Part shown: positions 2,595 through 8,333 of the stretch, piece by piece
Numbering within the stretch: the first letter of the stretch is position 1
Layout of the letters: the number at the start of each line of letters is the position of its first letter
DNA from: Bacteroidota bacterium
Lineage (GTDB): Bacteria > Bacteroidota > Bacteroidia > UBA4408
DNA length: 64,000 bases
Assembly: GCA_963169745.1 (NCBI GenBank)
Contig: CAUJCU010000021.1
Coordinates: 124,001 to 188,000, forward strand
Reading direction: 5' to 3'
The notes under the pieces: model-generated
Database searches by the model: none
Told to the model about the DNA's origin: nothing
The model's input: the letters and a program-made list of their open reading frames with translations, nothing else
Position numbers and translations under genes: made by a program

Positions 2595-3857
2595 TTATTC
2601 TACTACTACCTTCGTAGTATTTTGTGCCCCTTCGTTGGTGTTTATATTAACAAAGTAAGTACCTTTTGGCGTATTTAAGTTTAAACTAATATGTTGCTCG
2701 TTGCTGATTTCTTTTGCTAAAATTACTTGCCCCAAAACATCTATTACTTGTACATTGATTTGACTGTAGTTTTTGTCTAAAGCAATAGTATAAGTGCCAT
2801 TAGAAGGGTTGGGATAGATAGTAGCAGAAAGAGCTTGCGAACTTTCTGCTACCGACACAACACAATTTTCACTAAAACTTGCTATAGTGTCTTTTTGTGT
2901 CCAGTTGGCAGTACTCCAAGTTGCATCATCAACTTCAATACAAGAAAGGTTGGGGTTATTGGTAGCATTAAAAGCGTAGTCAGGCATATTGCTATTGTTC
3001 CCATTTTTAACATTTAAAGTTGTTAATTGATTGTTGCCACAACTCAAAAATATTAAAGCTGTATTCACAGAAACATCTAATGTAGTTAGTTGGTTATTGG
3101 CACAAAATGTACCACCCAACAAAGTATTTGCAGAAATATCTAAAGTTGTTAATGAGTTATTTTCACAATTCAGATATGTCAAAGCTGTGTTTGCAGAAAT
3201 ATCTAAAGTTGTAAATTGATTGTGGCTACAACTCAAGGCCCATAGAGCTAAATTCACAGAAAGATCCAACGTGGTTAATTGATTGAAGTCACAACTCAGA
3301 TCATTCAAAACGGTGTTCGCAGAAACATCCAAGGTGGTTAATAAATTACCGTAACACCACAAATATGTCAAAGCTGCATTTGCTGAAACATTTAAAGTAG
3401 TTAATTGAGCATTGTAACAGTGTAATCTAGTTAAAGCCGTGTTTGTAGAAACATTTAAAGAAGTTAATGGATTATCGGCACAATGTAAGTAATCCAATGC
3501 CGTATTTGCAGAAACATCCAAGCTAGTTAATTGATTATTGTAACAATGTATGTAAACCAAAGCCGTATTTGCAGAAACATCCAAGCTAGTTAATTGATTA
3601 TGGGAACAATCTAAAGTGTCCAACATAATAAACGCTTCAATACCAGTTAAATCGGCAATTGATAAATTAGCACATAATATAGAACCCGTATATGTATTTG
3701 CTTCGCTTATCTGTATTTCGGTATCTGAATTGGTATTGATAGCAGTGTTTCCAACCAAATAGGCTTTAAAATTAGCATCAGGTATGTTCACGTTTTGTGC
3801 ATTTAGCACAGCACTTATTCCCAATGCCATTAAAATAGAAAAGTAAACTTTTGTCAT
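2595..3857 (-). CDS. Secreted leucine-rich-repeat protein with T9SS sorting domain
   Basis: The 420-aa protein begins with a signal peptide (about residues 1-20, ending LNAQ). Ten tandem 21-residue leucine-rich repeats follow at residues 79-288, with the consensus LxxLxCxxNQLTTLDVSANTA. A spacer is followed by a C-terminal T9SS type A sorting domain (about 345-420, with IYPNPSNG and the final KVVVE). It is expected to be exported to the cell surface or medium. LRR proteins of this kind usually bind other proteins or glycans, but no ligand can be named. Each repeat carries one cysteine at a fixed position. The gene stands alone between two long gene-free spacers, with its own terminator. The exact substrate and role are unknown. 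Confidence 0.85.
   Translation of the reverse strand: MTKVYFSILMALGISAVLNAQNVNIPDANFKAYLVGNTAINTNSDTEIQISEANTYTGSILCANLSIADLTGIEAFIMLDTLDCSHNQLTSLDVSANTALVYIHCYNNQLTSLDVSANTALDYLHCADNPLTSLNVSTNTALTRLHCYNAQLTTLNVSANAALTYLWCYGNLLTTLDVSANTVLNDLSCDFNQLTTLDLSVNLALWALSCSHNQFTTLDISANTALTYLNCENNSLTTLDISANTLLGGTFCANNQLTTLDVSVNTALIFLSCGNNQLTTLNVKNGNNSNMPDYAFNATNNPNLSCIEVDDATWSTANWTQKDTIASFSENCVVSVAESSQALSATIYPNPSNGTYTIALDKNYSQINVQVIDVLGQVILAKEISNEQHISLNLNTPKGTYFVNINTNEGAQNTTKVVVE
2994..3623 (-). repeat. Ten in-frame 63-bp repeats encoding LRR units
   Basis: Ten tandem units of exactly 63 bp (21 codons) run without a gap inside the LRR gene. The LTTLD(V/I)SANTA part of the unit is best conserved at both protein and DNA level, while the LxxLxC positions vary. 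Such a tract could gain or lose units by slippage or recombination without breaking the frame. Confidence 0.85.
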
Positions 3858-6306: not shown

Positions 6307-6475
6307 CCATCATTTTAGAACAAATAAAACTCCTATAACGTGGGAGGCTATTTTATTGAAATAGTGAATAGAAAAAAATTGAGGGGAGAAAGAGAAAAAA
6401 AACAGGAAAAAGCGAAACTTGTTTTTTAAAAAAATGTATAATTGTGGCATAATTTTTTGTTTCACTTTGTTAGTC

Positions 6476-6700
6476 ATGAAAAAGCCCAAAAGTTTAAAAA
6501 AGCCTACTAGCGTAAAAAAGTCACCGGAAGATACATCTGAAGGGAAAAAGACATTAAAACTAAAACCTATTAAATCAAAAGAAGTAAAACGCTCTAAAAA
6601 TCCAAGTGTATTTGATGATGATGAGGAGGATTTTTTTGAAGATGACTTAACAGGGCTTGATGATTTTGAGGCAATGGAAATGGATGAAGATGATTTTTAA
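6476..6700 (+). CDS. Small charged protein, basic N-terminus and acidic C-terminus
   Basis: This 74-aa protein is not recognised by family. The first half is lysine-rich (KKPKSLKKPTSVKK and similar), and the last 25 residues are almost all Asp, Glu and Phe with a few Leu. There is no signal peptide or membrane segment. The ATG at 6476 is preferred over an upstream TTG at 6419. The upstream codons read as AT-rich spacer containing a promoter-like TATAATTG at 6437-6444. Similar small proteins with polyacidic tails are common hypotheticals in Bacteroidota. It converges with the PolX-like gene. It is probably disordered, perhaps a nucleic-acid or protein-binding tail, but this is a guess. Confidence 0.65.
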   Translation: MKKPKSLKKPTSVKKSPEDTSEGKKTLKLKPIKSKEVKRSKNPSVFDDDEEDFFEDDLTGLDDFEAMEMDEDDF

Positions 6701-6731: not shown

Positions 6732-8333
6732 TTATTTTTTCTTAAGCCATTGGGAAATTGATTCCAATGACTGCGTATTAAAACAATATTGCTTTTTAAG
6801 TAGCCCTTTTTGTGCTGCTAGTAAGCCATAGTGTATATCATCCAACCCTTTTATGCTGTGTGCATCGGGGTTTATTGAAATATAAACTCCTTTCTGCACA
6901 CAAGTTTGAATGTAGCGCCAGTCAATATCTAAACGATAGGGATTTGCATTCAGTTCTATGATCACATGGTTAGCTGCACATGCGTCAATTATTTTATTCA
7001 TATCTAACGGATAAGCAGGTCGCGATAGCAATAACCTGCCCGATAGATGCCCTAAGATGGTTGTAAAGGGGCTCTCAATAGCTTTTATAAGTCTTTGTGT
7101 AGCTTTTTCTATGTCCATCTTGAGAACACTGTGTACTGAGGCGATAACGAAATCAAAGCGTTGCAATATGTCGTCTTCGTAGTCTAAACGACCATCAATT
7201 AGAATATCGCTTTCTATTCCTTTTAGAATTTTAAAATTGTTTGAATTTTTATTCCACTCTTCAATTTCCTGATGTTGCTTTTCGATAGCTTCAACTTTTA
7301 ATCCTCCGGCATAAAAGGCAGATTGGCTGTGGTCGGTAATACCTATGTAATCCATTCCCAAATTCTTTACCGCCTGAGCCATTTCTTCCAGTGTATTTTT
7401 TCCGTCACTATATTGGGTGTGTATGTGAAGCATTCCTTTTATATCACTAAACTGCACCACATCATGAATACTCCCGTTTTGGGCCATTTCAAGAGCTTGT
7501 GCACTTTCACGCGCTGCCGGAATAATAAAAGGTAATTTATTTTTTAAAAAAACATCTTCTTCACTTAATGCATTGGTTGGAAAAGAATAAGAGGCATAAA
7601 AAGCCTCCAAAAACGCAGTAGAAGCACTCGTGTTAAACAACACCCTCCAAAACTCTTCAGGTTCAGTTACCATAATATTGACCTTAATAGGAAATTGCTC
7701 GAAATTTCTTATATATTCAATAGGTTTAAATGTGGTAAGCAAATCGAGTGATTCTATAATCTCACATTTTCTATGAAAATCTCCTGAATAGGCAAAAAGA
7801 TGATGTGGATATTGTTTTTGAAGGAGGTGTATTTGTTTTTCGGCCAACACTTCTATATCGGAATATAATGATTTGCCTTCGTGTGCTAAAGCAAACTCAA
7901 TTGCTTTTTGTATGGATTCTTGTGTTTTTTCGCCAAAGCCTTTTAAAGTAACTAATCGGTTTTCATAACAAGCGTATAACAGCTCTCCTGGGCTTTCAAT
8001 ATGTAATTCTTTCCATAGAACACGAAGCTTTTTAGAACCAATTCCTTTTATTCCAAGCATTTGTATAACGCCCGGTGGTATTTCACTCTTTAGCTGGGTT
8101 AATTCCTGAGTGGTTCCTGTTTGTATAATTTCATGAATTTTTTGTGCTATTCCTTTTCCTATTCCTTCAATTTTATCTAATTCGGCAAGAGTGTATGTAC
8201 TAAGGTCAGATCCAATTCTGTCAATTTTATACGCGGCAAAAAGCAGCGCTTTAATTTTAAAGGAATTTTCTACAAGCAACTCTAAAAGATGAGCCGTAGT
8301 TTCTAATATGTTGGCTATCTTTCGGTTGCTCAT
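6732..8333 (-). CDS. PolX-like protein: HhH plus degenerate polymerase plus PHP domain
   Basis: The 533-aa protein has the PolX layout. An N-terminal 8-kDa/helix-hairpin-helix region (about 1-150, with IEGIGKGIAQKI and IKGIGSKKL) comes first. A family X polymerase core (about 150-290) and a C-terminal PHP domain (about 298-533) follow. The PHP metal ligands are present: HIH at 303-305, DH at 334-335, ES, SVH, LGH and PDAH. The polymerase site is not conserved. The catalytic DxD position reads Ser195-Leu-Asp197, the third aspartate (VDF in Bacillus PolX) is Asn219, and the nucleotide-binding GS near 238 is lost. It is likely a nuclease or phosphoesterase in DNA repair without polymerase activity. 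It lies 36 bp after pntB on the same strand. Confidence 0.88.
   Translation of the reverse strand: MSNRKIANILETTAHLLELLVENSFKIKALLFAAYKIDRIGSDLSTYTLAELDKIEGIGKGIAQKIHEIIQTGTTQELTQLKSEIPPGVIQMLGIKGIGSKKLRVLWKELHIESPGELLYACYENRLVTLKGFGEKTQESIQKAIEFALAHEGKSLYSDIEVLAEKQIHLLQKQYPHHLFAYSGDFHRKCEIIESLDLLTTFKPIEYIRNFEQFPIKVNIMVTEPEEFWRVLFNTSASTAFLEAFYASYSFPTNALSEEDVFLKNKLPFIIPAARESAQALEMAQNGSIHDVVQFSDIKGMLHIHTQYSDGKNTLEEMAQAVKNLGMDYIGITDHSQSAFYAGGLKVEAIEKQHQEIEEWNKNSNNFKILKGIESDILIDGRLDYEDDILQRFDFVIASVHSVLKMDIEKATQRLIKAIESPFTTILGHLSGRLLLSRPAYPLDMNKIIDACAANHVIIELNANPYRLDIDWRYIQTCVQKGVYISINPDAHSIKGLDDIHYGLLAAQKGLLKKQYCFNTQSLESISQWLKKK

What the first reader, a model, noticed from the sequence alone, without database searches (positions are those of the whole stretch)
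6732..8333. PolX-like protein with replaced polymerase residues but intact PHP site
The domain order is that of bacterial PolX. However, the first catalytic Asp of DxD is Ser195, the third Asp is Asn219, and the dNTP-binding GS is absent. All PHP metal-binding motifs are kept. The protein would be a PHP nuclease or phosphoesterase guided by HhH and a dead polymerase core. It lies next to the pnt operon.
Basis: partly seen in the sequence, partly recalled or inferred. Interest (0 to 1): 0.55.

Follow-up and report, generated by a model that had tools for sequence, protein, structure and literature searches.

The report
Polymerase-dead PolX acting as nuclease
This bacterial gene encodes a DNA-repair protein built like a small DNA polymerase whose DNA-making site has decayed while its DNA-trimming site is intact; such proteins are already known to be common in this bacterial group, so the find is ordinary.

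Summary
The minus-strand ORF 6732-8333 (533 aa) is a PolX. Aligned with canonical PolX, the Asp triad reads Ser195-Asp197-Asn219 and the dNTP motif YFTGSKEHN reads NTSASTAFL. Palm and fingers are each about 23 residues short; the nine PHP metal ligands are kept. Here 35 of 35 PolX-bearing genomes of the relatives search and the 80 nearest relatives that one search kept are all noncanonical. Most likely it is a PHP-dependent 3'-end-processing repair nuclease held on DNA by its HhH domains. The genome gives no match for Ku or the LigD polymerase domain, so the proposed NHEJ role is unlikely here. The pnt neighbour is seen only within the genus (4 of 4; 0 of 106 other loci). A small extra: the lysine aligned to Pol beta residue 72 is kept in 112 of 144 noncanonical sequences.

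The parts
6732..8333 (-). polX gene, noncanonical PolX, 533 aa (stop codon included)
7884..8333 (-). N-terminal 8-kDa HhH domain and second HhH (thumb region), residues 1-150; K65 aligns with Pol beta residue 72
   Evidence: Pfam HHH_8 and HHH_5; Pol beta alignment
7662..7883 (-). Truncated palm, residues 151-224, with S195/D197/N219 in place of the Asp triad (domain borders approximate, set by me)
7521..7661 (-). Truncated fingers, residues 225-271 (borders approximate), dNTP motif degraded to NTSASTAFL (residues 234-242)
6735..7442 (-). PHP domain, residues 298-533; ligands H303 H305 H335 E374 H401 H429 E460 D490 H492
   Evidence: Pfam PHP; motif HHHEHHEDH at positions chosen by me to fit the paper's consensus; H303/H305 = D. 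radiodurans H332/H334

Best explanation
The protein is a noncanonical PolX of the short-palm, short-fingers type that is common in Bacteroidota. It cannot polymerise DNA. The HhH (8-kDa and thumb) domains hold gapped, nicked or broken DNA, and the PHP domain, with Mn2+, removes nucleotides or blocking groups from the 3' end so that a polymerase and ligase can finish repair. The shrunken palm and fingers serve as a scaffold between the two ends of the protein. Shown here: sequence, domain order, triad, truncations, PHP ligands, predicted fold, distribution. Shown elsewhere for Deinococcus members: no primer extension, Mn2+-dependent 3'-5' exonuclease. Inferred: that this protein has the same activities, and that it works in NHEJ-independent repair (gap repair or break-end cleaning), because no Ku and no LigD polymerase domain were found in its genome.
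For: Triad S/D/N, missing dNTP motif and two deletions; all nine PHP ligands; profile match to 2w9m (D. radiodurans PolX) E 9.9e-113 and to 3au2 E 7.9e-104; VIA-align Z 38.7 to 2w9m_B (511 aligned, rmsd 9.4) and 39.0 to 3au6_A (517 aligned, rmsd 14.5; the high rmsd probably reflects domain arrangement). PHP is the best-conserved part: mean identity to the three genus relatives is 67.5% in PHP, 59.6% in HhH, 42.6% in palm, 36.9% in fingers and 29.5% in the fingers-PHP linker. Biochemistry of two noncanonical PolX in PMC9226535. One PolX in the genome by the protein search; no match for Ku or LigD-pol.
Against: No member of the Bacteroidota group was assayed in the sections I read; the assayed ones are Deinococcus. 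One acidic residue (D197) and R188, the equivalent of Pol beta R183, remain, so residual nucleotide binding is not formally excluded; R188 is kept in 141 of 144 noncanonical sequences, which a merely decayed polymerase core would not need. The score in the NCBIfam PolX equivalog model, 396.7 bits, is below its cut-off of 426, as expected for a truncated member.
Confidence: 0.9

Rival explanations
1. An NHEJ nuclease: it trims ends for Ku and LigD, as proposed for noncanonical PolX in general.
For: PMC9226535 reports enrichment of NHEJ genes in PolX-bearing Bacteroidetes (about 49% against 19%). In the phylum sample, 13 of 29 same-class genomes with a strong PolX match (E below 1e-70, own genome left out) also have Ku (counted by hand).
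Against: The own genome gives no match for Ku or the LigD polymerase domain. In the relatives sample Ku occurs in 4 of 34 PolX-positive and 2 of 25 PolX-negative genomes (own genome left out; Fisher p = 1.0). In the phylum sample 16 of the 29 lack a Ku match, and 18 same-class genomes have Ku without a strong PolX match; the number of PolX-negative same-class genomes is not fully listed, so enrichment could not be judged there.
Confidence: 0.04
2. Base-excision repair enzyme (a narrower form of the best explanation): AP endonuclease and 3'-cleaning by PHP, together with 5'-dRP lyase by the 8-kDa domain, leaving synthesis to another polymerase.
For: K65 aligns with Pol beta residue 72 (that K72 is the lyase nucleophile is recalled) and is Lys in 112 of 144 distinct noncanonical sequences. 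No Nfo match in the own genome. PolX PHP domains are reported to have AP-endonuclease and 3'-phosphodiesterase activity (PMC9226535 section 13). Three relatives with PolX (G049, G052, G056) have no Nfo match and no Xth match over the cut-off.
Against: The own genome has Xth, which would normally carry AP-site cleavage. D. radiodurans PolX, the assayed noncanonical relative, has Glu at the K65 column in the printed alignment, and the 2022 paper says it does not take part in BER. The three Xth-less genomes are 91-99% complete, so gaps are possible.
Confidence: 0.33
3. A free-standing phosphatase or phosphoesterase of small molecules (histidinol-phosphatase-like), with DNA binding incidental.
For: The PHP domain resembles YcdX (1m65, Z 27.5) and histidinol phosphatase (2yxo_A, Z 21.8).
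Against: The HhH domains are the second most conserved part (59.6% within genus), and the full-length matches are to PolX with Z near 39.
Confidence: 0.03

Closest known systems
Noncanonical (altered) PolX, Prostova et al. 2022 NAR (PMC9226535), including Bacteroidetes and D. radiodurans PolX (2W9M)
   Same: Altered catalytic triad, palm and fingers deletions, degraded dNTP motif, hydrophobic residue at the Pol beta N279 position, PHP motif HHHEHHEDH, 8-kDa domain kept, found in Bacteroidota.
   Different: Triad here is SDN (D. radiodurans AEE, D. gobiensis ARE). No Ku or LigD-pol match in the genome. Lys, not Glu as in D. radiodurans, at the Pol beta residue-72 column. Activity of this protein untested.
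Canonical bacterial PolX (T. thermophilus 3AU2)
   Same: Domain order, fold over the full length, PHP domain (T. thermophilus itself has QHHEHHEDH according to the paper).
   Different: Canonical members have the Asp triad, GS motif and full-length palm and fingers; the window protein keeps only the second Asp.
PolX-like proteins of Actinobacteria (PMC12926913, passages seen)
   Same: PHP kept without polymerase function.
   Different: Those lack part of the 8-kDa domain and the whole polymerase domain; here a reduced palm and fingers remain.

Membership tests
Noncanonical PolX (PMC9226535) | Substitution of one or more residues of the Asp triad | tested here: met
   S195, D197, N219
Noncanonical PolX (PMC9226535) | Deletions in the palm (paper: <77 aa) | tested here: met
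   Second-to-third triad spacing 22 against 45, i.e. 23 residues missing; the paper's own domain borders were not reproduced
Noncanonical PolX (PMC9226535) | Substituted dNTP-binding residues | tested here: met
   YFTGSKEHN to NTSASTAFL; N279 equivalent is L242
Noncanonical PolX (PMC9226535) | Deletion in the fingers (paper: <55 aa) | tested here: met
   Span 36 against 59-60 by my proxy; the paper's own borders were not reproduced
Noncanonical PolX (PMC9226535) | Intact PHP site and 8-kDa domain | tested here: met
   HHHEHHEDH; HHH_8 E 2.3e-15
Noncanonical PolX (PMC9226535) | Grouping with other noncanonical PolX apart from canonical ones | tested here: inconclusive
   180 sequences: canonical and noncanonical separate with and without palm and fingers, support 0.40 and 0.58. 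186 sequences with other phyla: all 150 noncanonical group, support 0.52, but without palm and fingers the nearest group that holds them takes in 9 canonical sequences
Noncanonical PolX (PMC9226535) | No polymerase but Mn2+-dependent 3'-5' exonuclease activity | not testable with these tools
   Needs protein assays
Canonical PolX | Three acidic residues in the palm site and the GS motif | tested here: not met
   S/D/N and AS

The most novel reading that the evidence does not exclude
In Bacteroidota without NHEJ the polymerase-dead PolX is a two-ended gap cleaner: a lyase site on the 8-kDa domain (K65) treats the 5' side while PHP treats the 3' side of the same gap. The conserved remnant of the palm (G184, R188) is kept to hold the gap, which would explain why a dead polymerase core has not been lost. 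(Odds lowered from 0.2 on re-checking: D. radiodurans PolX has Glu at the K65 column.)
Probability: 0.17. Interest if true: 0.4.

Novelty: new member of a known kind. Interest (0 to 1): 0.12.

Why it matters
It adds one more clean example, in a genome with no Ku or LigD match, to the published case that bacterial PolX is selected for DNA-end processing rather than synthesis, and suggests that this protein type does not depend on NHEJ everywhere. The retained lysine at the Pol beta residue-72 column and palm Arg188 give two concrete sites to mutate.

Tried and rejected
Rejected: frame error or misassembly. The ORF is open over 533 codons, and same-genus genomes show the same kind of change (L002 SEE, L003 EEK, L004 IEK triads).

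Rejected: hidden replacement of lost acidic residues. S195, D197 and N219 sit on palm strands in the model, and none of 144 distinct noncanonical sequences has acid at all three columns. Model coordinates could not be read, so distances were not measured and a shifted acidic residue was not excluded by geometry.

Rejected: functional link to the pnt operon. PntB is next to polX in 4 of 4 loci of the genus but was not found in the 106 other loci scanned (26 unnamed, 80; four of these pairs are the same sequence), whose flanks are at most about 1.5 or 4 kb and sometimes cut short by contig ends. The commonest neighbour families in the 80 loci, named by my own reading of the sequences, are SppA-like (32), GH3-like (27), FolK-like (27) and glycosyltransferase-9-like (27); a DprA-like protein, which does act on DNA, is near polX in 10. 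I did not follow that up.

Led nowhere: monophyly of noncanonical PolX was weakly supported. The NHEJ link was not visible in the relatives sample. A literature search on PolX, dRP lyase, 8 kDa domain and Bacillus subtilis gave one paper, seen as a listing only. Two other searches gave 8 and 2 papers, of which I looked into PMC9226535 (abstract, sections 11-14 and 16, passages) and PMC12926913 (passages).

Counts: one search listed matches in 37 of 60 genomes (own included); two (G016, G031) were set aside as short PHP-only matches, leaving 35, all noncanonical. Four pairs of loci are the same sequence (L009/L074, L006/L086, L013/L087, L018/L095), so 148 noncanonical rows are 144 distinct. The 65 phylum loci looked at (30 best plus 35 chosen by me down the list) were 32 canonical and 33 noncanonical; further matches were not examined. 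One search reports 3 matches in the own genome: two are pieces of this gene, the third is not listed; the protein search gave one. In one search the label '145' stands for 144 sequences. I could not tell how many canonical-looking sequences other phyla hold: six plasmid records only were added.

Full report
What is there. The minus-strand ORF at 6732-8333 encodes 533 aa. Pfam finds HHH_8, HHH_5 and PHP, with no palm hit. NCBIfam's PolX model scores 396.7 bits, under its 426 cut-off. Searching the 2.99-Mb own genome with the protein gives one match, itself.

The polymerase site. L033, a canonical PolX from the same phylum, aligns along its length to T. thermophilus PolX 3AU2. Its triad D196/D198/D243 falls on S195, D197 and N219 of the window protein, both in a 60-sequence alignment and in a 180-sequence one. 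The dNTP motif YFTGSKEHN is NTSASTAFL; the GS pair is AS, and the Asn equivalent to Pol beta N279 is Leu242. The palm is 23 residues shorter between the second and third triad positions and the fingers about 23 shorter. Each of these is a listed mark of noncanonical PolX in Prostova et al. 2022 (sections 11, 12 and 16 read).

The PHP site. The nine ligands HHHEHHEDH are present. H303/H305 align with D. radiodurans H332/H334, whose mutation abolished exonuclease activity. Among 144 distinct noncanonical sequences none keeps three acidic triad residues (91 keep one, 47 two, 6 none; 96 different triads), and 144 keep the full PHP motif; the 32 canonical sequences also have it. The GS pair is still present in 43 of the 144 and in 32 of 32 canonical ones. 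The loci were found through PHP-containing queries, which favours intact PHP.

Relatives. The 35 PolX-bearing genomes of the relatives search, the window's own included, are all noncanonical, as are the 80 nearest relatives kept, among them Pedobacter, Sphingobacterium and Mucilaginibacter. The 80 are the best of 542 and so not a fair sample. SDN also occurs in L007 and L141. Of 65 further phylum loci that I looked at, 32 are canonical and 33 not, so canonical PolX does occur in this phylum as delimited by the genome set. This agrees with the paper's statement that most Bacteroidetes PolX are noncanonical. A 2026 survey repeats that PHP is better conserved than the polymerase site in PolX1 (PMC12926913, passages seen).

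Structure. The model matches 3au6_A (Z 39.0, 517 aligned, rmsd 14.5) and 2w9m_B (Z 38.7, 511 aligned, rmsd 9.4); the PHP part matches YcdX 1m65 (Z 27.5, rmsd 1.9, 219 aligned).

Role. Mean identity to the three genus relatives falls from PHP (67.5%) and HhH (59.6%) to palm (42.6%), fingers (36.9%) and the linker before PHP (29.5%), so selection seems to have favoured the nuclease and DNA-binding parts. Yet G184, R188, P272 and R275 are each kept in 141 of 144, so the remnant is not drifting freely. R188 corresponds to Pol beta R183 by the GSFRR motif given in the paper. K65 aligns with Pol beta residue 72 and is Lys in 112 of 144 noncanonical sequences and in 2 of 32 canonical ones of this phylum, 27 of which have Asp. 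It is Lys in 4 of 4 canonical sequences from other phyla that I added, while 2 of 2 alphaproteobacterial noncanonical ones lack it, and D. radiodurans PolX has Glu there. Lysine is therefore probably ancestral and kept in this group, which leaves lyase chemistry possible but not shown.

Partners. The own genome gives no match for Ku, the LigD polymerase domain or Nfo, and one for Xth. In the relatives sample Ku occurs in 4 of 34 PolX-positive and 2 of 25 PolX-negative genomes (own genome left out). In the phylum sample 13 of 29 same-class genomes with a strong PolX match have Ku (counted by hand), close to the paper's 49%; 18 same-class genomes have Ku without a strong PolX match. NHEJ is therefore a frequent companion in some lineages but apparently not needed here.

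Neighbourhood. pntB precedes polX in 4 of 4 loci of the genus and was found in 0 of 106 other loci. The gap between the two window genes is 36 bases on the same strand, so co-transcription is possible but says little about function. Around polX in the 80 loci the commonest neighbours are housekeeping-like; a DprA-like gene is near it in 10 (names by my own reading).

Verdict. Observation confirmed, interpretation supported, kind already described. The remaining open points, the role of the palm remnant and NHEJ-free function, are modest.

Noticed in passing
window 6419-6700 (+): 93-aa ORF with a basic lysine-rich start and a very acidic end, converging on the polX stop; no Pfam match and not found in the flanks held for the 109 other PolX loci scanned.
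   Followed up: partly
window 2595-3857 (-): 420-aa ORF of short leucine-rich repeats (LTSLDVSANTAL type) with an apparent C-terminal secretion/sorting-like tail (own reading, no search).
   Followed up: no
genomes G049, G052, G056 (loci L150, L026, L011): PolX present but no Nfo match and no Xth match over the cut-off: noncanonical PolX might be the AP endonuclease there, unless the genes fall in assembly gaps.
   Followed up: partly
loci (10 of 80), e.g. L140:7141-8235: A DprA-like protein (own reading of the sequence) is encoded a few genes from polX on the other strand.
   Followed up: no
L149, L159 (palm region): Noncanonical PolX with longer than canonical palm spacing (59 and 55 against 45), so palm length drifts in both directions.
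   Followed up: no
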